Below are positions 4,645 through 62,641 of a DNA stretch of 64,000 nucleotides, one piece after another. Source of the stretch: Erythrobacteraceae bacterium (GTDB lineage Bacteria; Pseudomonadota; Alphaproteobacteria; Sphingomonadales; Sphingomonadaceae); assembly GCA_027486035.1 (NCBI GenBank), contig JAIXPX010000017.1, forward strand, positions 1-64,000, in the 5' to 3' direction. How positions within the stretch are numbered: position 1 is the first letter of the stretch; each line of letters starts with the position of its first letter. A model generated the notes under the pieces. The model was not told the DNA's origin. It was given only the letters and a program-made list of their open reading frames with translations, and made no database searches. The translations under genes were made by a program, and so were the position numbers.

Positions 4645-5973
4645 ATGCGCCTGTTCCACATCGCTGCCAGCGCCCTGGCCGTCGCGCTGGCCGCCCAGTC
4701 TGCCCATGCCGAGGACCCGGCGACCCGCAAGGCGATCGAGGCCGATTACGACAGCTATCTCGCCCCGCTGTTCCTCGACTTCCACGCACACCCCGAACTG
4801 GGCTTTCTCGAAAAGCGCACCGCGGGCAAGATGGCTGCCGAACTGCGCGCGGCAGGGCTCGAGGTGACCGAGGGCGTGGGCGGCACCGGGGTGGTCGGCA
4901 TCGTCCGCAACGGCAAGGGCCCGGTGATCCTGATCCGCGCCGACATGGACGGCCTGCCGGTCGAGGAAAAGAGCGGCCTTGCCTATGCCTCGCGCGCGAA
5001 GCAGATCGGCGAGGACGGCAAGGAATACCCCACGATGCACGCCTGCGGGCATGATACCCACATCACCGCGATGGTCGGCACGGCGCGGCGGCTGATGGCG
5101 ATGAAGGACAAGTGGAAGGGCACCTTGATGTTCGTCGTCCAGCCCGCCGAGGAAGGCGTGCGCGGCGCCAAGGCGATGATGAAGGACGGGCTCTACACCC
5201 GCTTCGGCAAGCCCGACTATGCGCTCGCCTTCCATGTCGCCGCCGAACTGGAGACGGGCAAGGTCTCGGCCTCGGAGGGCATCCAGTATTCAAGCTCGGA
5301 TTCGCTCGACATCATGGTACCCGGCATCGGCACCCACGGCGCCGCGCCGCACCTGGGGCGCGATCCGGTTTACATCGCCTCGCAGATCGTCACCGCGCTG
5401 CAATCGATCGACAGCCGCGAGATCTCGCCGGTGAAGCCGGTGGTGGTGACGGTCGGCAGCTTCCACGCAGGCTCCAAGCACAACATCATCTCGGACGAGG
5501 CGCGGCTGCAAGTCACCGTGCGCGCCAATGACGAGGAAACCCGCGAACAGGTGATCGCCACGGTCGAGCGGATCGCGGTCAATATCGGCAAGGCGCATGG
5601 CCTGCCCGATAACCTGCCGGTCAAGGTGATTCGCGGTTCGGGTACGCCGACGACGATCAACGATGCCGCGCTGGCCCGCCGCCTCAATGCGGTGATGAAG
5701 CGCGAGCTGGGCGAGGGCGCGGTGGTGCCCTTCGAGCAGCGCAATATGGGCGCGGAGGACTTCACCTATTTCGTCGGCCCCGATACGGGCGTGCCGGGCT
5801 ACTACTTCGCGGTCGGCGGCACCACGCCCGAACGGATCGCGGCGGCCAAGGCGGGCGGCCCGCCGATCGCCGGGCATCACTCCCCGCTGTTCCAGGTCGC
5901 CCCGCGCGAAAGCGTGACGCTGGGCACACGGGCGATGGTCGCAGCGGTGCTGGACCTTGCCAAGGGCAAGTGA
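4645..5973 (+). CDS. Secreted M20 family metallo-amidohydrolase
   Basis: This 442-residue member of the peptidase M20D/hippurate hydrolase-like group has a signal peptide (MRLFHIAASALAVALAAQSAHA), so it acts in the periplasm or outside. Metal-site landmarks are HACGHDTHITAM (about residue 130), QPAEEGVRG (catalytic Glu, about 168) and GAEDFTYF near 370; the dimerisation insert GTHGAAPHLGRDPVYIASQIV is present. Such enzymes hydrolyse N-acyl amino acids or amide conjugates; the substrate is not deducible. The start is set by GAGGGGAG 9-16 bases upstream of ATG 4645 and by the signal peptide. It appears to be monocistronic, followed 12 bases later by a parS-like site. Confidence 0.94.
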   Translation: MRLFHIAASALAVALAAQSAHAEDPATRKAIEADYDSYLAPLFLDFHAHPELGFLEKRTAGKMAAELRAAGLEVTEGVGGTGVVGIVRNGKGPVILIRADMDGLPVEEKSGLAYASRAKQIGEDGKEYPTMHACGHDTHITAMVGTARRLMAMKDKWKGTLMFVVQPAEEGVRGAKAMMKDGLYTRFGKPDYALAFHVAAELETGKVSASEGIQYSSSDSLDIMVPGIGTHGAAPHLGRDPVYIASQIVTALQSIDSREISPVKPVVVTVGSFHAGSKHNIISDEARLQVTVRANDEETREQVIATVERIAVNIGKAHGLPDNLPVKVIRGSGTPTTINDAALARRLNAVMKRELGEGAVVPFEQRNMGAEDFTYFVGPDTGVPGYYFAVGGTTPERIAAAKAGGPPIAGHHSPLFQVAPRESVTLGTRAMVAAVLDLAKGK

Positions 5974-39585: not shown

Positions 39586-41085
39586 TTACTCCAGCCCAAG
39601 CGCGTCGAGGTTCATCGTCGCGGCATTGTAGCTGGCTTCCGCGAGCCGCCCTGCGAGCTGGGCGCGGATTGCGCCGATCTGGGCGTTGGCGGCGGTCTCC
39701 TCGCGGGCGTTGACGAGGAAGAACTCCCCCGCGCCGAGGCGGAAGCGGGTGCGTTCGGCCTGGACCATCTGGTTCGCCTGCTTGACCTCGGCATCGGCCA
39801 GGTCGGCGAGCTTCAGCGCCGCGCCGAGGTTGGCGAGAATGTTGGCGACCTCGGTGGTGATCTGATCGGCGATGCGGCGCTGGCGCAGCTCGGTCTCGCG
39901 CAGTTCGGCTTCGGCGCGCTGCAGCCGTCCCCGGGCCTCGCGGCGTTGCAGCGGCACCTTGAAGGTCAGGCCGACCACGGTATCGGTCGAATCGAAGCCC
40001 GGACCGCCGGGGCCGATCTGCCCGAAATCGCGCGACAGCTCGACCTTGGCATCGAGCGTCGGCTGGAGGTCGTTCCGGCGCAGCGCCACGCGATTGTTGG
40101 CCCGCTCGAGCGCAAGGCGGAAGGTCTGGAGCTCGGGCCGCGTCTGGATCGTCTCGGACAGCGGGGCGGCAGCAAGCATCTCTGCCGGCGGCACGGGCTT
40201 CATGCGGCTGAGATCGGGCAGCATCTCGCGGGTTGGCACGACCATCTGGCCGTCGGACCCGCGAAGATAGAAGCCGAGCGAGTTCGCGGCCGTCGCAAAA
40301 TCACGCCGCGCCTGTTCCAGCAGGGTGCGGCGGCGCAGCAGGTTCTGCTCGTTCTCGGTAAGGGCAATGCGGGCGCGCGCGCCTTCCCTGACCTCGCGGC
40401 CGAGCCCGATCTGGCGGGCCTCGGCGATCTCGAGCAGCTCCTCGAAAACCCGGATTTCCTCGCCGGCAGCGACCCAGCGCCAATAGGCACGCAGCGCCTC
40501 GTGCTGGACGTTCAATTGCACCAGCATCACATCGAGCCGGGCTTGGCTGGCGGCGAGCCGGGTGTCCTCGATCCCGAAGCGGCGGCTGTCGATGTCGCGG
40601 TTGCGCAGCAGCGAGAACAGCGCGCCGACCTTCGCCTCGCCCAGCGCGTTGGTGTAGTCGTAATTCTCGTAGATCGGGAAATCGCCCGAGGAGACGCGGT
40701 AGGAACCGAAAACTTCGGCGCCATAGAGCCGCAATGGCTGGCGCGCCTCGACCTTGCCGAACCCGCCCGAATAAAAGCCGGTCAGCCGGTCGTAATATTC
40801 GCCCTTGAGCATCAGGTCGAAGGCACCGTCCGCCGCCACCTGGTCGGCACGCGCGGCCGCCTCGCGCTCGAAGGCTTCGAGCACCTGCGGGAAGGTCAGC
40901 GCCGAGGAGCGCAGCACTTCCTCGGGTAGCAGCGGCCCGGTCTTTAGCGCGACGTCGAGCGGTTCGGCATTGGGGACGACATCCTGCGCGAGGGCCGGGG
41001 TGCCGACGACGGCCAGCGCGAGCCCCAGCGCAAGCGCTGCCGCGCCCGCCAAGCTCCTGCCGATGCCGCCGGATGCCGGGGTCAC
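39586..41085 (-). CDS. TolC family outer-membrane efflux protein
   Basis: This 499-residue protein forms the outer-membrane exit duct of a tripartite exporter. It has a signal peptide (to about residue 34, VGTPALAQ). Two TolC repeats follow, with long amphipathic helices (about 60-250 and 290-495), for example LTFPQVLEAFEREAAARADQV, RIALTENEQNLLRRRTLLEQARRDFATAANSLG, LQTFRLALERANNRVALRRNDLQPTLDAKVELS and the C-terminal RLGAGEFFLVNAREETAANAQIGAIRAQ. The start overlaps the HlyD stop (ATGA), so it is coupled to the upstream genes. Confidence 0.92.
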   Translation of the reverse strand: MTPASGGIGRSLAGAAALALGLALAVVGTPALAQDVVPNAEPLDVALKTGPLLPEEVLRSSALTFPQVLEAFEREAAARADQVAADGAFDLMLKGEYYDRLTGFYSGGFGKVEARQPLRLYGAEVFGSYRVSSGDFPIYENYDYTNALGEAKVGALFSLLRNRDIDSRRFGIEDTRLAASQARLDVMLVQLNVQHEALRAYWRWVAAGEEIRVFEELLEIAEARQIGLGREVREGARARIALTENEQNLLRRRTLLEQARRDFATAANSLGFYLRGSDGQMVVPTREMLPDLSRMKPVPPAEMLAAAPLSETIQTRPELQTFRLALERANNRVALRRNDLQPTLDAKVELSRDFGQIGPGGPGFDSTDTVVGLTFKVPLQRREARGRLQRAEAELRETELRQRRIADQITTEVANILANLGAALKLADLADAEVKQANQMVQAERTRFRLGAGEFFLVNAREETAANAQIGAIRAQLAGRLAEASYNAATMNLDALGLE

Positions 41086-42113
41086 TTGCTCTTTCCGGTG
41101 CTCGTCGCTGCCGGCAGCTGCGGCGGGAAATTGTTGAGCTGGCGCCAGATCTCGTAGCCGACGGGCACGGTTTCGAGCAGGATGAAGGCCTGCACCGCCG
41201 CGCCGAAACGCACGTAGCGCTCCTCGGGCCAGCCGTAGCCGTCGAACTCCTCTTCGGCGATCAGCACGCGGAAGCGGCCGTCGATCTGGGCCGAGCGGTC
41301 GACGGCGATGACGCGGCCCCCGAAGGTGCCGATCGCGACCGAGGGCCAGCCCGAGAACTGCACCGCAGGCCAGCCTTCGAACTGGATCCGCGCCTTGTCG
41401 CCCGGCCGCACCAGCGCGACATCGCGTCCGTCAATGAAGATCTCCACCACCCGCACCGCACCGTCCGGCACAAAGGTCGCAAGCACGTCGCCCGCCTTGA
41501 TGAAGGTCGCGGCATCGCCCGCATTGAGGCTTTGGATGAAGCCGTCGCGCGGGGCCCGCACGATCTGTTCGGACTGGCGCGCGATGCCGACGTCGGCGCG
41601 GTTGAGGTCAGCCTCCGAGGCAGCGACCTTGCCGCGCAGGTCCGCGACCTTGATCAGCGCGAGTTCGTAGTCGCGCCGGGCGGCCAGCCCTGTCTCGAAC
41701 AGCTCGCGCGAGCGGCGCACATCGATCTCGGCAGTCGCCAGCGCCGATTGCGCGGCCCGCAATTGCAGCTCGATCTGGCGGCGCTCGGATTGCAGGCGCT
41801 CGATCAGGTTGGGGTCGATGTCGGCGATGCGCACGATCGGATCGCCTTTCTTCACCGAGCTGCCGTCGCGCACGTACCATTCCACGATCCGGCCGGGCAC
41901 CAGCGCGTTGATATCCTGCTTGCGCTCGTTGGGGCTGAGCGTGGTGACGACACCGGGGCCCGAGGTGGTCTGCACCCAGGGGACATAGACGAGGAACGCC
42001 ACCCCGATCACGACGGCGGCGAGGATCAGGTAGAACACCACGCGCATGACCCGCGGCACGCGGATCGAGGCGAGGGTGGTGAAGTGCGCCATGTCTTCCT
42101 TCAGCGTCGCCAT
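41082..42113 (-). CDS. HlyD-type membrane fusion protein
   Basis: This 343-residue periplasmic adaptor has an inner-membrane anchor at about 22-44 (MRVVFYLILAAVVIGVAFLVYV). A lipoyl/barrel-sandwich half-motif follows (INALVPGRIVEWYVRDGSSVKKGDPIVRIAD). A coiled-coil hairpin (about 100-165, ERLQSERRQIELQLRAAQSALATAEIDVRRSRELFETGL...) and the second lipoyl half (QIVRAPRDGFIQSLNAGDAATFIKAGDVLATFVPDG) come next. It links the ABC protein and TolC. It starts 1 base after the ABC stop. Confidence 0.93.
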   Translation of the reverse strand: MATLKEDMAHFTTLASIRVPRVMRVVFYLILAAVVIGVAFLVYVPWVQTTSGPGVVTTLSPNERKQDINALVPGRIVEWYVRDGSSVKKGDPIVRIADIDPNLIERLQSERRQIELQLRAAQSALATAEIDVRRSRELFETGLAARRDYELALIKVADLRGKVAASEADLNRADVGIARQSEQIVRAPRDGFIQSLNAGDAATFIKAGDVLATFVPDGAVRVVEIFIDGRDVALVRPGDKARIQFEGWPAVQFSGWPSVAIGTFGGRVIAVDRSAQIDGRFRVLIAEEEFDGYGWPEERYVRFGAAVQAFILLETVPVGYEIWRQLNNFPPQLPAATSTGKSK

Positions 42114-42114
42114 G

Positions 42115-43839
42115 TCACTGCCCTCCCTTCGCGCCAGACTGGTTCATCGCGGCGGCGAAGGCATCGAAGTTGTCGAAGAAGCGCTGCCGTGCGGGCTCGA
42201 GATAGAGGAAGCGGTCGAAGCCGAGATCGGCGCGGCGGTTCGAGAAATAGATCACCGTCGTGTAGGCTTGGGCGCGCAGTTCGGCGACGGCGCGGGCGAT
42301 CGGCTCGGGGTCGAGCAGGTCGAACAGGCGGCTGAGAACGAGAATGCGCGGGCGCTCGAGCAGGGCGTTGGCAAGCTTCAACTGCTGGAGCTCGACGGCT
42401 GAGAGCGGATAGCCTGTCGAGGCAAGCGGCGTGTCGAGCCCCTTGGGCAGGGTGGCGATGGTTTCGTCCAGCCCCACGGTCTCGAGCGCTGCGACCATGC
42501 GTTGCGGCGCGGTTTCGGGGCAGGACAGGCCGAGATATTCGCGCACCGTCATCTCGACGATGGTCGGGCGGTCGAGGACATGGACGTTCTTGCGCAGGTG
42601 GTGCGCCTCGATCGCCTTGATGTCGATGCCCCCCAGGGTCGCGATGCCGCCCTGCGGCAGATCGTGCAGCTTGAGCACGTTGTTGAACAGGCGCTGCACC
42701 CCGTGCTGGCTGGCGGCCGCCATGATGATCGAGCCCGAGGGGATCTCGAGATCGAACTGCACATCCTCGTGCCGCGCCCGTCCGCCGACGCCGCGCATCA
42801 CGATCGTGTGGTCCGGCCCGTCGAAGGGGTCGGCGCCCTTGGGCTGTTCCTGCTCGACCTCGTAGAACTGCGAGATCTCCTCGACCGCAGCGAAGAGGTC
42901 GTAGAAGTAGCCGAGATAGCCGCCGAGCTGCGACACGCCGGCGAAGGCGGCGGAGAGCACCAGTTCGGCGGCGACGAGCTGGCCGAGGGTCAGCTCGTTC
43001 TCGATCACCAGCCAGCCGCCAAGGCCGAGCAGCGCGGCGCTCGCAGCGGCATACATGACGAGGAAGGTCAGCGTCTGGGAGAACAGGTGACGGAAGTGGC
43101 GCTTGCGATCGGTGATATAGGCACGGGTGTGCGCGTCGCTCTTGTCGAGCGCGTAATCGATGCGGCGCTGCGACTTGAAGAAGCCGTTCGAGTTGCCGAT
43201 CGTCTCGAGCCAGGCGGCGGTGGAGTGCTTGGCGTGGCTCAGATCGACCCCGGTGCGCAGCGCCCGCGCGCCCCACACCATCCACACGATCCAGATCAGC
43301 GCGATCATCACCAGCGTGAAGCCGAGGAAATAGGGATGGTAGAGGCTCACCAGCGTGAAGCCGACCGCGATCTGGAGCAGGGTCGTGAAACCGCCGATCA
43401 TCAGGATCGGGATGGCGGTCTGGACATAGACTACGTCGAAATAGCGGTTGAACAGCGCGCTCTTCTTGGCGTCGCCGAAGAAGGGGTTCTGCGCATAGAC
43501 CGAGATCAGGGTGATCTCCGCCACCATGCGCGCATAGAACCGCCGCGCGAACAGCTCCATCAGGTGAACCCGCAAGGCGTAGAGCAGGCTCGAGATCAGC
43601 AGCAGGCTGAACAGGCTCAGCGAGAGCATCACCAGCGGCGCGGTGAGCGCGGTGCTGGCGATGGTGTTGATCAGCATCTGCACCGAGATCGGCGTCGCGA
43701 GGCTCAGCAGGCTGATGCCGATCCCGTAGACGGCGGCCAGCCAGTAGAAACTCGCCTCGGGCTTCAGGATGTCGAAGAAAATCCTGAAGAACTTCACCAG
43801 CGAAATCTGAGAGCCGTAAGTTTGGCCTTCCCCTGCCAT
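42115..43839 (-). CDS. ABC exporter-like protein with degenerate nucleotide-binding domain
   Basis: This 574-residue protein has a type I exporter transmembrane domain (six helices, about 15-310, including YWLAAVYGIGISLLSLATPISVQMLINTI) and a C-terminal ABC-fold domain (about 345-560). The ATPase motifs are all lost. The Walker A site reads MAAASQHGVQR (about 370), the Q-loop VLDRPTIVEMT, the signature LSAVELQQ instead of LSGGQ (about 478), Walker B RILVLSRLFDLLD without the catalytic Asp-Glu (about 493), and the H-loop YFSNRRADL with Asn for His. It is therefore predicted not to hydrolyse ATP. Intact length and regular codons argue against simple decay. It heads the unit ABC-HlyD-TolC. Confidence 0.9.
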   Translation of the reverse strand: MAGEGQTYGSQISLVKFFRIFFDILKPEASFYWLAAVYGIGISLLSLATPISVQMLINTIASTALTAPLVMLSLSLFSLLLISSLLYALRVHLMELFARRFYARMVAEITLISVYAQNPFFGDAKKSALFNRYFDVVYVQTAIPILMIGGFTTLLQIAVGFTLVSLYHPYFLGFTLVMIALIWIVWMVWGARALRTGVDLSHAKHSTAAWLETIGNSNGFFKSQRRIDYALDKSDAHTRAYITDRKRHFRHLFSQTLTFLVMYAAASAALLGLGGWLVIENELTLGQLVAAELVLSAAFAGVSQLGGYLGYFYDLFAAVEEISQFYEVEQEQPKGADPFDGPDHTIVMRGVGGRARHEDVQFDLEIPSGSIIMAAASQHGVQRLFNNVLKLHDLPQGGIATLGGIDIKAIEAHHLRKNVHVLDRPTIVEMTVREYLGLSCPETAPQRMVAALETVGLDETIATLPKGLDTPLASTGYPLSAVELQQLKLANALLERPRILVLSRLFDLLDPEPIARAVAELRAQAYTTVIYFSNRRADLGFDRFLYLEPARQRFFDNFDAFAAAMNQSGAKGGQ

Positions 43840-44103
43840 GTCAGCCTTTCCGTGCCCAACCGGTCTGTGCGCGTGTCGCCGCCCCGCCGGATGGCGCGCG
43901 TGCGTGACCATTTGCTTCTATGGCAACCGCGCCGCGCCGCAAGCCCTCAATGGCCCAGGCGCGCAGCGGTTCCGTGCGCAGGAAATCTCTGCAAATTCTT
44001 GAAGGTATGATCATGAACTGAGAGGTGGTGTCATCTTGTACCGCCGCCGCGTTAGTGGTCGAAGCTTGCGCTTGCCTGAACGGGCCGCGATGAAGCCGGT
44101 GCG
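43840..44103. promoter_or_regulatory. Divergent intergenic region with a weak 10-bp-spaced TGCAA/TTG motif
   Basis: These 264 bases separate the minus-strand exporter from the plus-strand oxidoreductase operon, so they must hold both promoters. At 43989-44004 the sequence CTGCAAATTCTTGAAG resembles the TTGCAA-N4-TTGCAA sites of the maltodextrin locus, with mismatches in the second half. It may be coincidence. Confidence 0.3.
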
Positions 44104-45231
44104 ATGAGCGGATTTCAAGCTTCGGGCGAAAGCAGGGCAGCGCGGTTGCTGCTGGTTGGCGGGGGCCATGCCCAAGTCGCGGTTCTCGCGGATTTCGTGC
44201 AGCGGGGCGTGCCCGGCGGCGCGCGCTGCCTGCTCCTCACGCCGGAGCCTGCCTTGCGCTATTCGGGCATGGTGCCCGGCTGGCTGGCGGGACAGCATGG
44301 CAGGGATGACGGGCTGGTCGATCTTGCAGGGCTTGCCGCGCGGGCCGGGGTGGAGCTGGTGCTCGATCGCTGCATCGGCCTTGATCCCGATGCGCGGGTG
44401 GTGCGCACCGCGGGCGGCGGTCAAATCGGTTTCGACCTTGCCGCGTTCGACACGGGCGGGGAGGGGCAGGCAGCGGACCTGCTGGGCGAGGATCCGCGTC
44501 TCCTCGATGTGCGGCCTATCGATGCCCTGGTGGATCGCCTCGCCGCCCTGCCCGCGCCCGGGCGCGTGGTGGTGGCGGGGGGCGGGGCGGGGGGCGTGGA
44601 GCTTGCTTTCGGTCTGCGCAACCGCGCCGGAGCCTCGCCCGGGCAGGTGACGCTCGTCACGGGCGAGGGCGGCCTGCTCCCCGGCTTTTCGGGCGCGGTG
44701 CGGCGGCGGGTCGCAAGGGCGCTTGCGAGGCAAGCCATTGTGGTCATCCATGAGGACCTTCGCTTCACCCAAGGCGCGCTGGTCGCCGGCGTCCGCTCGC
44801 TCGAGCCCGCCGACCTCGTCATCGCCGCGCTCGGCAGTGCGGCGCCGGCATGGGTGCGCGACAGCGGCATCGCGGCGGACGCGGACGGCTTTCTGCTGGT
44901 CGATGCGCATCACCGCTCGGTGTCGCACCCCCACGTCTTCGCCGCAGGAGACGTCGCGGCGCGTGCCGACCGGCAGCTTGCCCATTCGGGCGTTCACGCC
45001 GTGATGGCCGGGACGGTGCTCGCCGCCAATTTGCGCGCCGCGCTGGCCGGACGGCCCCCGCCGCGCACCTATCGCCCGCGCCGCCACAGCCTCTACCTCC
45101 TCAACACCGGCGATGGCTCCGCGATTGCCAGCTACGGCCCGCTCGCGGCGCAGGGTGCTCGCGTGCTTGCCCTCAAGCACCGCATCGACAAAGCGTGGAT
45201 CGCCCGATACGCCCGCCTGACGAAGCCTTGA
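44104..45231 (+). CDS. FAD-dependent pyridine nucleotide-disulfide oxidoreductase family protein (TIGR03169-like)
   Basis: This 375-residue flavoprotein resembles NDH-2/sulfide:quinone reductase folds and the TIGR03169 family, whose members are sometimes fused to SelD. Visible are the FAD-binding start RLLLVGGGHAQVAVLADF (about 14-31), the mid GRVVVAGGGAGGVELAFGLR NAD site (about 160) and the second FAD contact HPHVFAAGDVA (about 278). No redox-active CxxxxC pair is seen. No selD lies next to it; instead it is followed after 10 bases by a TVP38-oxidoreductase fusion. The electron acceptor is unknown. Confidence 0.8.
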   Translation: MSGFQASGESRAARLLLVGGGHAQVAVLADFVQRGVPGGARCLLLTPEPALRYSGMVPGWLAGQHGRDDGLVDLAGLAARAGVELVLDRCIGLDPDARVVRTAGGGQIGFDLAAFDTGGEGQAADLLGEDPRLLDVRPIDALVDRLAALPAPGRVVVAGGGAGGVELAFGLRNRAGASPGQVTLVTGEGGLLPGFSGAVRRRVARALARQAIVVIHEDLRFTQGALVAGVRSLEPADLVIAALGSAAPAWVRDSGIAADADGFLLVDAHHRSVSHPHVFAAGDVAARADRQLAHSGVHAVMAGTVLAANLRAALAGRPPPRTYRPRRHSLYLLNTGDGSAIASYGPLAAQGARVLALKHRIDKAWIARYARLTKP

Positions 45232-45241
45232 GGGATCATTC

Positions 45242-47383
45242 TTGAAAAAGCTCGCCATCCTTGCCGCGCTTGCCGCGATCATCGCTGCCTATTTCGGTCT
45301 CGACCTCGGGCAATATCTGACCCTTGCCGGGATCAAGGCCGGGGTGGCCGAATGGGAGGCCTTCTACGCCGCCCACCCCGCCGCCGTGATCGCCGGCTTC
45401 TTCGCGGTCTATGTCGCGGTCACCGCAGCCTCGCTGCCGGGGGCGGCGCTGATGACGCTGGCGGCGGGCGCATTGTTCGGGGTGATGACGGGGACGATCA
45501 TCGTCTCCTTCGCGTCGACGCTCGGGGCGACGCTCGCCTTTCTCTCCTCGCGCTACGTGCTGCGGGACAGCATCGAGGCGCGCTTCGGAGAGCGATTGAA
45601 GGCGATCAACGCCGGGGTCGAACGCGACGGGGCCTTCTACCTCTTCACCCTGCGGATGATCCCGGCCTTCCCCTTCTTCGTCGTCAATCTCGTGATGGGC
45701 CTCACCCGCATCCACACCTCGACCTATATGTGGGTGAGCCAGGCGGGGATGCTGCTGGGGACGGTGGTCTATGTGAACGCGGGCACGCAGCTTGCGCGGA
45801 TCGAAAGCCTCTCCGGGATTGCCTCGCCGGGGGTGCTGGGCAGCTTCGTGCTGCTGGGTATCGCGCCGTGGCTCGCCAGGCTGGTGATCGGCGCGCTCCA
45901 GCGCCGCAAGGCCTATGCGGGCTTCAAGCGCCCCCGGAAGTTCGACCGCAATATGGTGGTGATCGGTGCGGGCGCGGCGGGGCTGGTCAGCGCCTATATC
46001 GCCGCAACGGTGAAGGCCAAGGTCACGCTGGTCGAGGCCAAGGACATGGGCGGCGATTGCCTCAACACCGGCTGCGTGCCGTCCAAGGCCCTGATCAAGA
46101 GCGCCAAGGTCGCCAGCATGATGCGCCACGCCGATACCTACGGCCTTGCGCCGGTGGAGCCCGAGGTGCCCTTCAAGGCGATGATCGCCCGGGTGCTGGC
46201 GGCGGTGAAGGCGATCGAGCCGAATGATTCCGTCGAGCGCTACACCGGTCTCGGGGTCGATGTGGTCAAAGGCTATGCGACCATCATCGACCCGTGGACG
46301 GTGGAGATCGCGGGCAATGACGGCACCACGCAGCGCCTCACCACCCGCAGCATCGTGATCGCCAGCGGCGCGGAGCCGGTGGTGCCGCCGATCCCCGGCA
46401 TCGAGGGATCGGGCTACCTCACCAGCGAGACCATGTGGGCGGCCTTTGCCGAGATGGACGCTGCCCCGGCGTGCGTCGCGGTGCTGGGCGGCGGGCCGAT
46501 CGGGTGCGAATTGTCGCAGGCGCTGGCGCGGCTCGGCTCGAAGGTCACGCTGGTCGAGATGGCCGATGCCCTGCTGGGGCGCGAGGATGCGGATGTCTCG
46601 GCGCTCGCCAAGGCGGTGCTGGAGGCGGACGGGGTGCAGGTGCTCACCGGCCACAAGGCGGTGCGGATCGAGGGGCGCACGCTGATCGCCGAACGGGCCG
46701 GGGCCGAAGTCGAGGTGCCATTCGACACGCTGATCGTCGCGGTCGGCCGCCGCGCGCGGATGACCGGCTTCGGGCTGGAGGCGCTGGGGGTCGACACCGC
46801 CAGCACCATCGTCACCGACGAATTCCTCGCCACCAAGTTCCCCAACATCGTCGCGGCCGGAGACGTCGCGGGGCCCTACCAGTTCACCCACACCGCCAGC
46901 CACCAGGCCTGGTACGCCAGCGTCAACGCGCTGTTCGGACAGCTGCGCCGCTTCAAGGCCGATTACCGCGTGATCCCGGCGGTGACCTTCCTCGACCCCG
47001 AATTCGCGCGCGTCGGGCTGAACGAGCGCGAGGCCGAGGAGCAGGGGATCGCGGTGGAAGTCACCCGCTACGAGTTGGACGACCTCGACCGCGCCATCGC
47101 CGAGAGCGAGACGAAGGGCTTCGTCAAGGTGCTGACCCCGGCAGGCGGCAAGGACACGATCCTGGGCGCAACCATCATCGGCGCGCACGCGGGCGAACTC
47201 ATTGCCGAATATGTGCTGGCGATGAAGCACGGGATCGGCCTCGGCAAGATCCTCGGCACGATCCACGCCTATCCGACCTTCGCCGAGGCCAACAAATACG
47301 CCGCAGGCAAATGGAAGAAGGCGCACAAGCCCGAAGGCCTGCTCAAGTGGGTCGAACGCTACCACGATTGGCGGCGCGGATGA
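45242..47383 (+). CDS. TVP38/TMEM64 membrane domain fused to a dihydrolipoamide dehydrogenase/MerA-like oxidoreductase
   Basis: This 713-residue fusion has a DedA/VTT-type membrane domain at residues 1-225 (VTAASLPGAALMTLAAGALFG and RMIPAFPFFVVNLVMGLTRI). A class I flavoprotein disulfide reductase follows. It carries the FAD site VVIGAGAAGLVSAYIA (about 240), the redox pair GGDCLNTGCVPSKAL (about 276-281), the NAD site VAVLGGGPIGCELSQAL (about 418), the second FAD site VAAGDVAGPYQFTH, and the C-terminal His-Glu pair in IHAYPTFAEANKY. MerA's extra C-terminal cysteines are absent, so mercury reduction is unlikely. The start is TTG 45242 with AGGGA upstream. The next gene overlaps its stop. Confidence 0.9.
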   Translation: MKKLAILAALAAIIAAYFGLDLGQYLTLAGIKAGVAEWEAFYAAHPAAVIAGFFAVYVAVTAASLPGAALMTLAAGALFGVMTGTIIVSFASTLGATLAFLSSRYVLRDSIEARFGERLKAINAGVERDGAFYLFTLRMIPAFPFFVVNLVMGLTRIHTSTYMWVSQAGMLLGTVVYVNAGTQLARIESLSGIASPGVLGSFVLLGIAPWLARLVIGALQRRKAYAGFKRPRKFDRNMVVIGAGAAGLVSAYIAATVKAKVTLVEAKDMGGDCLNTGCVPSKALIKSAKVASMMRHADTYGLAPVEPEVPFKAMIARVLAAVKAIEPNDSVERYTGLGVDVVKGYATIIDPWTVEIAGNDGTTQRLTTRSIVIASGAEPVVPPIPGIEGSGYLTSETMWAAFAEMDAAPACVAVLGGGPIGCELSQALARLGSKVTLVEMADALLGREDADVSALAKAVLEADGVQVLTGHKAVRIEGRTLIAERAGAEVEVPFDTLIVAVGRRARMTGFGLEALGVDTASTIVTDEFLATKFPNIVAAGDVAGPYQFTHTASHQAWYASVNALFGQLRRFKADYRVIPAVTFLDPEFARVGLNEREAEEQGIAVEVTRYELDDLDRAIAESETKGFVKVLTPAGGKDTILGATIIGAHAGELIAEYVLAMKHGIGLGKILGTIHAYPTFAEANKYAAGKWKKAHKPEGLLKWVERYHDWRRG

Positions 47384-56573: not shown

Positions 56574-60799
<4,226 letters not shown>

Positions 60800-60800
<1 letters not shown>

Positions 60801-62641
60801 CAGTTGTCAGTCTCCAGAACGCAGGCTGCAAAGCCGAAGGCGGGCAGTGTGATCCTGACCGATCCCGGCGATACGAGGGCGGCAGGGCAGGGGCCTACCA
60901 GCGGCGCGACACCGCGCGCGCGGTAGCTGACCTCGACTGTCTGCGAAAGTGGCGTTTCGCCGGTATTGAACACCGCCAGCACGCGCTGGCCACTGTCCGG
61001 ATCGTGGCGCTCCACGGCAAGCAGGCCGGGCGCCGTTTCGGAAAAGCCGCGCAGGGTGCTGAGACCCCGGCGCAGGGCAGGGCTGGCGGTGCGCGCGGCG
61101 GAAAGCTCGGCGATCAGCCGGTAGAGCGGGTGGGCAGGATCGAAATTGCTTTGCGCCGTGGTGGCGTCGCTGCCGATCAGGTTGTTGTCGTTGTAGGCTG
61201 CGGTGAGGCTGGGGAACATGTCCTCGCGCGCGAGCTGGTCGTTGCCGTCGGAGATGAAGCCCTGCTCGTCGCCATAGTAGACCGTCGGCACGCCGCGCAG
61301 CAGGAACATCATCGCATGGCCAAGCTTCACGCGGGCAAGCAAGGTGGCCTCGTCGGCATTGCCGCTCATGGCGCGCACGAACATCGAGAAACGCCCGAAG
61401 TCGTGGTTGCCCAGAAAGGTCGGCAAGCCGGTCGCGGTTTTCGCGCCGCCCGGATAGATCGCGTCCTGCTGGAGGAACTCGGCCATCAGGCGCGGGCTTG
61501 CCTTGCCGCTCGCAACCATCTGTGCGGCTTTGGCAAAGCCCATATCGAGCGCATAGGGCAGGCCGCTTTCTGCCATCACCTGCGCAGCGAGGGTGGCGGT
61601 TGGTTCCTCATAGGCGATCTCGCCGAAAATGTGGAAGTGGCCGATACCCTTCGCCTCGGCGCGCTTCAGCATCGCGGGCACGAATTGCTGCCAGAACTCC
61701 GGGTTCACGTGCTTTGCGGTGTCGATCCGGAAGCCGTCGATGCCATAGTCGTCGATCCACTTGCCGAAGATGTCGATCATGCCGGAGACGACGCGCGGGT
61801 GCTCGGTGGCGAGGTCGTCGAGGCCGGAGAAGTCGCCGTAGACAGAGCTCTCGCCGATCCAGTGGGAATTTCCGCGGTTGTGGTAGAGCGTGACGTCATT
61901 GAGCCACGCCGGAACCTTCACGTTCTTCTCGGCCTCGGGCACCACTGGGGTGTAGGCGAAGCTCGGATCGGTGAGCTTGGCCCAGTTGGCCGGATCGGGG
62001 TTGTCGTCGCCCGCAAAGCCTTGGTTGATCACCTTGCCGCCCGGCCCGCCGCGACGCGAGAAGGGGTAATCGCCCTTGCCGCGATAGGCATAGCCGGTCG
62101 CCTCGCCTTCGGCATAGCCGATCACGTCGGCGGTGTGGTTGGTGATGATGTCCATATAGACCTTCATCCCGCGCGCATGGGCGGCATCGACGAAGGACTT
62201 GAACTCGGCATTGGTGCCGAAATGCGGATCGACGCTGGTGAAATCGGTCACCCAGTAGCCGTGGTATCCCGCGCTCTCCTCGCCGGGCTTGCCCTGCACG
62301 GGCTTGTTCTTGAAGATCGGCGCGAACCAGATCGCGGTGACGCCCATGTTCTGGATGTAGTCGAGCCGCGCGGTCAGGCCCTTGAGGTCGCCGCCATGGT
62401 AGAAGCCCTTGTGCGTGGGATCAAAGCCGTGCTGGAGCGGGCCGCCCTTCAGGCCGCCGCGATCATTGGCCGGATCGCCGTTTTCGAAGCGGTCGGGCAG
62501 AACGAAATAGATGATCTCGTCTTCCAGCTGGCGCTCGGCCAGGGGTGCCGGCGCTGCCGCTGCGTTACCCCTTGCCGGCGCTCCCGCCAGAGCGGTCTGC
62601 GCGCATAGCACAGCCGCCAGGCTCACGAAGATTCGTGTCAT
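60800..62641 (-). CDS. Secreted alpha-amylase family glycosidase (GH13, cyclomaltodextrinase/neopullulanase-like)
   Basis: This 613-residue exported enzyme has a signal peptide MTRIFVSLAAVLCAQTALAGA. The GH13 catalytic domain carries FVLPDRFENGDPANDRGG, MDIITNHTADV (region I), IDGFRIDTAKHV (nucleophile Asp, about 320), FHIFGEIAYEE (acid/base Glu) and FLGNHDFGRFS (about 405). A C-terminal beta domain ends the protein. Likely acts on starch or dextrins in the periplasm and is the first gene of the minus-strand maltodextrin unit. A TTGCAA-type operator begins 46 bases upstream. Confidence 0.95.

What the first reader, a model, noticed from the sequence alone, without database searches (positions are those of the whole stretch)
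42115..43839. ABC exporter whose nucleotide-binding domain has lost every ATPase motif
The transmembrane domain, HlyD and TolC partners look intact. In the ABC domain Walker A (AAASQHGVQR region), Q-loop, signature (LSAVE), Walker B (LVLSRLFD) and H-loop (FSNRR) all lack the catalytic residues. Regular coding and overlapping operon structure argue for selection, not decay. Either a second ATPase pairs with it, or the pump uses another energy source or has become a scaffold. This would be an unusual type I secretion-like system.
Basis: partly seen in the sequence, partly recalled or inferred. Interest (0 to 1): 0.75.

Follow-up and report, generated by a model that had tools for sequence, protein, structure and literature searches.

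The report
ABC exporter that lost its ATPase
A three-part bacterial export pump has kept its membrane channel but lost every part needed to burn ATP, so have all its relatives that were read (many of them in light-harvesting bacteria), and one relative has dropped the dead motor domain altogether, so the pump probably runs on something other than its own ATPase.

Summary
Confirmed and extended. The 574-aa gene at 42115-43839 (- strand) is a type IV ABC exporter half followed by HlyD- and TolC-family genes. Its nucleotide-binding domain keeps the fold but lacks Walker A, Q-loop Gln, LSGGQ, Walker B Asp/Glu and H-loop His. This is inherited: none of 115 distinct sequences read (window included, down to 37% identity, Alpha- and Gammaproteobacteria) has a P-loop or LSGG. 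Median dN/dS is about 0.15 in both halves. 88 of 90 loci keep ABC-HlyD-TolC; two run off their contigs. No partner ATPase recurs beside it except UvrA in one clade. Conservation is inverted: the ATPase domain is the better conserved half in 1 of 861 family pairs, against 48 of 55 in intact type I secretion exporters. One relative (L152) has no ATPase domain. A membrane Glu, E292, is invariant. Carriers co-occur with reaction-centre genes pufLM (246 genomes: 26/14/15/191), and most genus members have an EcfG-type promoter motif. Best reading: an ancient tripartite exporter that does not hydrolyse ATP at its own domain, probably ion-driven or passive, used under light or oxidative stress. Energy source and substrate are inferred.

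The parts
42115..43839 (-). ATPase-dead ABC exporter half (membrane domain plus pseudo nucleotide-binding domain), 574 aa
   Evidence: orthologues
42859..43800 (-). Transmembrane domain, residues 14-327, six long helices; type IV exporter fold
   Evidence: AlphaFold2 model; Foldseek best matches PCAT1, TmrAB, TM287/288, HlyB, TM-score 0.83-0.85 over the query
42175..42807 (-). Pseudo nucleotide-binding domain, residues 345-555; fold kept, catalytic motifs lost
42688..42723 (-). Former Walker A (residues 373-384, MAAASQHGVQRL); the Lys column is Gln382
42571..42573 (-). Former Q-loop Gln, now Asp423 (D/E/N in 107 of 115, Gln in none)
42391..42408 (-). Former signature motif, PLSAVE (residues 478-483)
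42319..42342 (-). Former Walker B, LVLSRLFD (residues 500-507), Asp->Ser503, Glu->Arg504
42238..42240 (-). Former H-loop His, now Asn534
42964..42966 (-). E292 in transmembrane helix 6: Glu in 115 of 115 distinct sequences, also in the NBD-less one; Asn in 11 of 11 intact controls
43336..43338 (-). H168 between helices 3 and 4: His in 115 of 115, Ser in 11 of 11 controls
41082..42113 (-). HlyD/RND-MFP-type periplasmic adaptor, 343 aa
39586..41085 (-). TolC-family outer membrane factor (OEP), 499 aa
43949..43973 (-). EcfG-type promoter-like site GGAAC-N16-CATT about 110 bases upstream of the ABC start (loose form; the strict GGAAC-N16-CGTT occurs in the same region of other genus members)
   Evidence: 1 loose match in the window, 1.73 expected by chance: only position and recurrence in relatives speak for it; consensus from PMC3892343

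Best explanation
The gene belongs to an old, monophyletic family of tripartite exporters (ABC membrane domain + HlyD adaptor + TolC channel) whose ABC half stopped hydrolysing ATP before the family spread. The dead domain was kept as a folded scaffold or regulatory platform and was discarded in at least one lineage. The membrane dimer, adaptor and channel still form a conduit across the envelope. I think it most likely works as an ATP-free exporter, driven by an ion gradient (secondary-active, with the invariant TM6 glutamate E292 as the candidate coupling residue) or running downhill. It is probably switched on by the stress sigma factor EcfG in this genus and helps cells that live with light and reactive oxygen, perhaps by clearing photoreactive or oxidised small molecules. 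Shown: loss of the motifs, purifying selection, constant three-gene operon, inverted conservation, one natural NBD-less member, statistical co-occurrence with pufLM, recurrent promoter motif. Inferred: absence of any partner ATPase, ion coupling, stress induction, substrate. My step probabilities: no ATP hydrolysis at its own domain 0.95; functional 0.95; no partner ATPase 0.6; ion-coupled 0.4; light/oxidative-stress role 0.5.
For: None of 115 distinct sequences has [AG]xxxxGK[ST] or LSGG; Walker B Asp in 0 of 114 with the domain. 88 of 90 loci have ABC-HlyD-TolC in order on one strand, two run off contigs. ATPase domain better conserved than membrane domain in 1 of 861 family pairs (0 of 163 pairs with membrane domains at least 60% identical), against 48 of 55 pairs of intact type I secretion controls. 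L152: 333-aa membrane-only protein followed at once by HlyD and TolC; its nearest relatives (60-63%) have divergent dead domains. dN/dS. E292 in 115 of 115. pufLM co-occurrence (both/family only/pufLM only/neither): genus sample of 100, 59/1/15/25, p=3.5e-12; order sample of 246, 26/14/15/191, p=6e-15; order without the genus 18/14/12/185, p=8e-11, with 5 of those 18 at least 600 kb apart on one contig. EcfG-type motif, loose form, in 32 of 78 upstream regions, 0.024 expected each (related sequences, so not independent). Precedent: NBD-less MsbA transports drugs with a proton gradient (PMC4979069, passages); LmrA needs Glu314 in TM6 for proton and drug transport (PMC6155054, passages).
Against: The dead domain is still under purifying selection within the genus and still folds in the model, so it does something. 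L152 is one fragmented genome (93% complete, 250 contigs). E292 need not be equivalent to LmrA Glu314: counted back from the Walker A Lys column it lies about 16 residues nearer the periplasm. PMC6155054 reports no current for LmrA-MD where full-length LmrA with Mg-ATP gave one. 14 of 40 carriers in the order sample lack pufLM and 15 of 41 pufLM genomes lack the family; of 47 distinct non-genus carriers taken from the top matches 19 lack pufLM. Co-occurrence counts ignore phylogeny. The window's own promoter site has the loose form only and 1.73 such matches per 64 kb are expected by chance; 46 of 78 upstream regions, most of them outside the genus, have none. No enrichment that points to PpsR. 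No substrate and no transport assay.
Confidence: 0.5

Rival explanations
1. A separate ATPase energises the pump in trans: an unlinked ABC half or free NBD docks on the membrane dimer, the dead domain serving as the inert half of a mixed dimer.
For: Exporters that pair one degenerate with one live site are common (PMC7756269, passages). The own genome holds 25 further ABC_tran matches over the cut-off. 17 of 80 flanks hold some P-loop ORF.
Against: No ATPase-like cluster recurs beside the operon except UvrA in one clade (not all neighbour clusters were annotated). All motifs are lost, also the signature that would serve a partner's site. L152 has no domain to pair with.
Confidence: 0.2
2. Passive gated conduit: the TMD-HlyD-TolC assembly is a diffusion channel with no energy coupling.
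For: No energy source visible in the operon; NBD absent in L152.
Against: An invariant membrane Glu and other family-specific charged residues suggest more than a pore.
Confidence: 0.15
3. Scaffold or sensor rather than transporter: the ABC half is a membrane platform that gates or positions HlyD/TolC or signals stress.
For: Fold kept without catalysis; stress-type promoter motif; purifying selection on the dead domain.
Against: HlyD and TolC follow in 88 of 90 loci, which points to trans-envelope export; the membrane domain is the best conserved half.
Confidence: 0.12
4. Local decay or a sequencing error of an ordinary type I secretion ABC gene.
For: Only the motif loss itself.
Against: Same losses in all relatives read, dN/dS about 0.15.
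Confidence: 0.01

Closest known systems
Type I secretion ABC exporters (HlyB/LssB/PrtD)
   Same: Best NCBIfam match TIGR03375 LssB (83.9 bits against a cut-off of 693.1); type IV fold; HlyD and TolC partners
   Different: ATPase motifs lost, N-terminal part of the profile not matched, no recurrent secreted substrate gene
Heterodimeric exporters with one degenerate site (TmrAB, TM287/288, BmrCD)
   Same: Degenerate nucleotide site; TmrAB and TM287/288 among the best structural matches
   Different: There one site stays intact in the partner; here no intact partner is encoded nearby
LmrA-MD and MsbA-MD, engineered NBD-less ABC membrane domains
   Same: ABC membrane domain without working NBD; TM6 Glu (LmrA) needed for ion coupling (PMC6155054, PMC4979069, passages)
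   Different: Those are laboratory truncations of ATPase-active transporters; here the loss is natural and family-wide, and the system is tripartite
MacAB-TolC
   Same: Tripartite ABC efflux through TolC; expels photosensitising protoporphyrin in E. coli (PMC4263509, abstract and outline)
   Different: MacB has a fold distinct from other ABC transporters (PMC5985334, abstract in listing) and is ATP-driven (recalled); substrate here unknown

Membership tests
ABC exporter, ATPase-active | Walker A P-loop lysine | tested here: not met
   0 of 115 distinct sequences has [AG]xxxxGK[ST]; Lys stands at the aligned column in 3, without the motif
ABC exporter, ATPase-active | Walker B Asp and catalytic Glu | tested here: not met
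   Asp 0 of 114; Glu in 9 of 114, window Arg
ABC exporter, ATPase-active | LSGGQ signature, Q-loop Gln, H-loop His | tested here: not met
   LSGG 0 of 115; signature Gln 1 of 114; H-loop His 1 of 114; Q-loop Gln 0 of 114
ABC exporter fold (type IV) | Six-helix membrane domain plus NBD fold | tested here: met
   AlphaFold2 pLDDT 81.7, pTM 0.73; TM-score 0.85 to PCAT1
Type I secretion system | ABC, HlyD and TolC genes together | tested here: met
   88 of 90 loci, two truncated
Type I secretion system | Protein substrate, usually encoded nearby | tested here: inconclusive
   No general recurrent neighbour outside the genus; remote substrates not excluded
Heterodimeric exporter with one degenerate site | Intact partner half encoded with it | tested here: not met
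   No ABC-type neighbour recurs; an unlinked partner was not tested
Secondary-active ABC membrane domain (LmrA-MD type) | Transport without NBD, driven by ion gradient | not testable with these tools
   Only indirect: NBD-less member L152, invariant TM6 Glu
EcfG (general stress response) regulon | GGAAC-N16-CGTT promoter | tested here: inconclusive
   Strict form (N15-18 allowed) in 10 of 78 upstream regions, nine with N16 and one with N17 (0.0086 expected each); loose form in 32 of 78; the window has the loose form only

The most novel reading that the evidence does not exclude
A natural, ancient and widespread family of ABC exporters has given up ATP: a secondary-active (ion-gradient-driven) tripartite pump built on an ABC membrane domain, with the dead ATPase domain kept only as a scaffold and lost outright in at least one lineage, and used by aerobic light-harvesting bacteria against light or oxygen stress.
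Probability: 0.35. Interest if true: 0.9.

Novelty: new variant of a known kind. Interest (0 to 1): 0.75.

Why it matters
ABC transporters are defined by ATP hydrolysis. Whether their membrane domain alone can do useful transport has rested on engineered truncations such as those of LmrA and MsbA. A natural family that lost the catalytic residues, stayed under selection across two proteobacterial classes, and in one case lost the whole domain, would make that question testable in a native system. The link to aerobic anoxygenic phototrophs and to a stress promoter motif gives a first handle on function.

Tried and rejected
PpsR-type sites (TGT-N12-ACA, motif recalled) upstream: 2 of 23 regions, about 0.5 expected, so no sign of direct co-regulation with photosynthesis genes in the window. 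Rhodopsin as the common factor of pufLM-negative carriers: 3 of 20 carrier handles (19 distinct genomes; the three are Parvularcula, L068, L069, L081), 0 of 19 comparison genomes; too few. OxyR regulation: a LysR gene lies near the operon in 7 loci and its best NCBIfam match is OxyR, below cut-off, in the 6 tested, but the OxyR peroxide cysteine Cys199 (recalled) is not at the aligned place in those, so peroxide sensing by the OxyR way is rejected. Physical linkage to the photosynthesis genes as the whole explanation of co-occurrence: the two lie 31-53 kb apart in 16 genus genomes that I compared (122 kb in G019, different contigs in others), but elsewhere they are mostly not close. Intermediates with intact motifs: no match between E=1e-109 and 1e-30 in 246 genomes (up to 5 candidates scored per genome). 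In an even sample of 385 genomes of the class only 3 carry the family at E<=1e-60 (mostly up to 3 candidates scored per genome). A plasmid search found 15 records with relatives, all under 60% identity, in sphingomonads; not followed. One search used wrong columns for the Walker A Lys and the Q-loop Gln; searches give the right ones. One search counted 15 non-genus flanks with a P-loop ORF by a looser pattern; one search counts 12 by the stricter one. A second structure prediction was not run.

Full report
Observation. The ORF at 42115-43839 (- strand) is intact and codes for a 574-residue ABC exporter half. Pfam reports ABC_membrane over its cut-off and ABC_tran just under it, starting after Walker A; the genome scan scores the same place just over (26.7 bits, cut-off 25). 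Against 11 intact type I secretion ABC proteins of related genomes (12 fetched, the fragment L177 dropped) every catalytic position is replaced: Walker A Lys to Gln382, Q-loop Gln to Asp423, LSGGQ to LSAVE, Walker B Asp-Glu to Ser503-Arg504, H-loop His to Asn534. HlyD- and TolC-family genes follow on the same strand. The finding is confirmed.

It is a family, not an accident. Among 61 near genomes, the window's included, 29 hold the gene (the 28 others at 45-89% identity, one of them, G014, as a split gene); the other listed matches are at 34% or less (the list is cut). Of these 80, 78 could be read in full (L064 is partial, L105 split). I read 42 further loci from genome searches, 41 with an NBD. 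With duplicates removed, 115 distinct sequences remain, the window included: none has a P-loop ([AG]xxxxGK[ST]) or LSGG; of the 114 with an NBD, Walker B Asp is in 0, Q-loop Gln in 0, H-loop His in 1, signature Gln in 1, Walker B Glu in 9. A tree of 59 family rows and 3 intact controls separates the family with full support on a long stem, and the rows that branch off first are equally dead, so the loss predates the family's spread. Members are found in Alpha- and Gammaproteobacteria.

Selection. Over 78 pairs within the genus (13 sequences) the median dN/dS is 0.145 for the membrane domain and 0.152 for the dead domain, maximum 0.257. The model keeps a full exporter fold (pLDDT 81.7, pTM 0.73), closest to PCAT1, TmrAB, TM287/288, SAV1866 and HlyB. 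Over larger distances conservation is inverted: the ATPase domain is the better conserved half in 1 of 861 family pairs, whereas in intact type I secretion exporters it is so in 48 of 55 pairs. The controls are closer to each other than the family is, but among the 163 family pairs with membrane domains at least 60% identical it is 0 of 163.

A natural deletion. In G757 (L152) the protein is 333 residues: the membrane domain ends, and HlyD starts overlapping its stop codon by 4 bases, followed by TolC. Its nearest relatives (60-63%) still have a dead domain, which changes faster: 54-82% identical among five of them, against 74-88% for the membrane domain. This is one fragmented genome and needs confirmation, but a chance assembly join that leaves start and stop codons overlapping seems unlikely. 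No other membrane-only member was seen among 29 genomes of its family.

Operon and partners. In 88 of 90 loci ABC, HlyD and TolC lie in this order on one strand; the other two run off their contigs. Outside the genus (43 loci) no other neighbour is general. A LysR gene, best NCBIfam match OxyR (under the cut-off, 6 tested), lies 0.1-0.2 kb away in five loci and 0.8-0.9 kb away in two, without the peroxide cysteine (recalled) at the aligned place. A UvrA-like gene (named by recall) and two further genes neighbour four or five loci of one clade. 12 of 43 non-genus and 5 of 37 genus flanks hold some ORF with a P-loop pattern; only the UvrA-like cluster does so in more than two loci. Not all neighbour clusters were annotated.

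Candidate coupling residue. Residues kept in the whole family but different in the intact controls include E292 in helix 6 and H168 between helices 3 and 4, each 115 of 115 against Asn and Ser in 11 of 11; L152 keeps both. LmrA needs Glu314 of helix 6 for proton and drug transport, and the membrane domain of MsbA transports with a proton gradient without any NBD (PMC6155054 and PMC4979069, passages read). The first paper also reports no current for the NBD-less LmrA where full-length LmrA with Mg-ATP gave one. Counting from the Walker A Lys column, E292 lies about 16 residues nearer the periplasm than Glu314 (90 against 74), so it is an analogy, not a homologous site.

Where it occurs. In a sample of 100 genomes of the genus the family is in 60 and pufLM in 74: 59 both, 1 the family only (G448, a fragmented genome), 15 pufLM only, 25 neither (Fisher p=3.5e-12). 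In 246 genomes of the order: 26/14/15/191 (p=6e-15). Without the genus: 18/14/12/185 (p=8e-11); of those 18, 5 have the two at least 600 kb apart on one contig, 1 about 52 kb apart, 12 on different contigs. In a gammaproteobacterial order of 145 genomes: 3/1/1/140 (p=3e-5), or 1/1/1/140 (p=0.03) without the two genomes known as carriers beforehand. Of 50 carrier handles chosen from the top matches 30 have pufLM; comparing contigs and coordinates, two are repeats (G524 of G038, G520 of G057) and one (G548) lies in the genus, which leaves 28 of 47. These tests do not correct for phylogeny. Inside the genus the operon sits 31-53 kb from pufLM in 16 genomes that I compared. A paper on 14 Erythrobacter genomes lists a 'toxin secretion ABC transporter' and an outer membrane protein downstream of the photosynthesis gene cluster of its Group I strains (PMC4919336, one section read), which I take to be this operon; that section does not mention lost motifs.

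Regulation. Upstream of the operon 10 of 78 regions carry GGAAC-N15-18-CGTT (nine with N16, one with N17; nine in the genus, one in L102; 0.0086 expected each) and 32 of 78 a looser form ending NRTT (0.024 expected). The regions are related, so these are not independent. GGAAC-N16-CGTT is the EcfG1 promoter motif of Rhizobium etli (PMC3892343, passages). The window's copy (43949-43973) is of the loose form; it is the only such match in 64 kb, where 1.73 are expected by chance, so only its place and its recurrence in relatives speak for it. The general stress response of Erythrobacter litoralis is reported to be regulated by visible light (title only, seen in the reference list of PMC10674011; the paper is not held).

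Interpretation. The domain lacks the residues by which ABC proteins bind and hydrolyse ATP. The membrane part is what selection keeps most, and the dead domain can be absent. I therefore favour an ATP-free exporter, ion-driven or passive, over a hidden partner ATPase. Its company (pufLM, a stress-type promoter motif) suggests a job under light or oxidative stress; clearing of photosensitising pigment intermediates is a guess prompted by protoporphyrin export through MacAB-TolC (PMC4263509, abstract).

Print. The searches that bear on the family turned up no description of it in their listings; the library lacks most subscription journals. Pfam and NCBIfam have no model over its cut-off for the ABC protein other than ABC_membrane (the NCBIfam list shows the best 25 of 29).

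Noticed in passing
L152 (G757:C125), 4735-5736 -: NBD-less, membrane-domain-only relative with intact HlyD and TolC genes behind it.
   Followed up: partly
L115 and L118 (both in G542): Two diverged copies of the family in one genome; G542 is the genome of L103, Chromatocurvus halotolerans.
   Followed up: no
L028 / L105 (G014:C259:3198-4912): The ABC gene of one close relative is split into two frames; described only.
   Followed up: no
L069, L078, L090, L098, L100, L109, L113: A LysR regulator most like OxyR, but without the peroxide cysteine (recalled) at the aligned place, lies near the operon in several clades.
   Followed up: partly
window 45242-47383 +: 713-aa protein: N-terminal part without an NCBIfam match, then an FAD/NAD disulfide oxidoreductase of the mercuric reductase / dihydrolipoyl dehydrogenase kind.
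   Followed up: no
window 44104-45231 +: Oxidoreductase of the Nterm_to_SelD kind, under that model's cut-off, divergent from the ABC operon.
   Followed up: no
window 58091-62641 -: LacI-type regulator and alpha-glucosidase/amylase-type genes between the operon and the pufL/M gene of the contig.
   Followed up: no
G000:C32:92926-93681 -: Reaction-centre (Photo_RC) gene at the end of the same contig, about 50 kb from the operon.
   Followed up: yes
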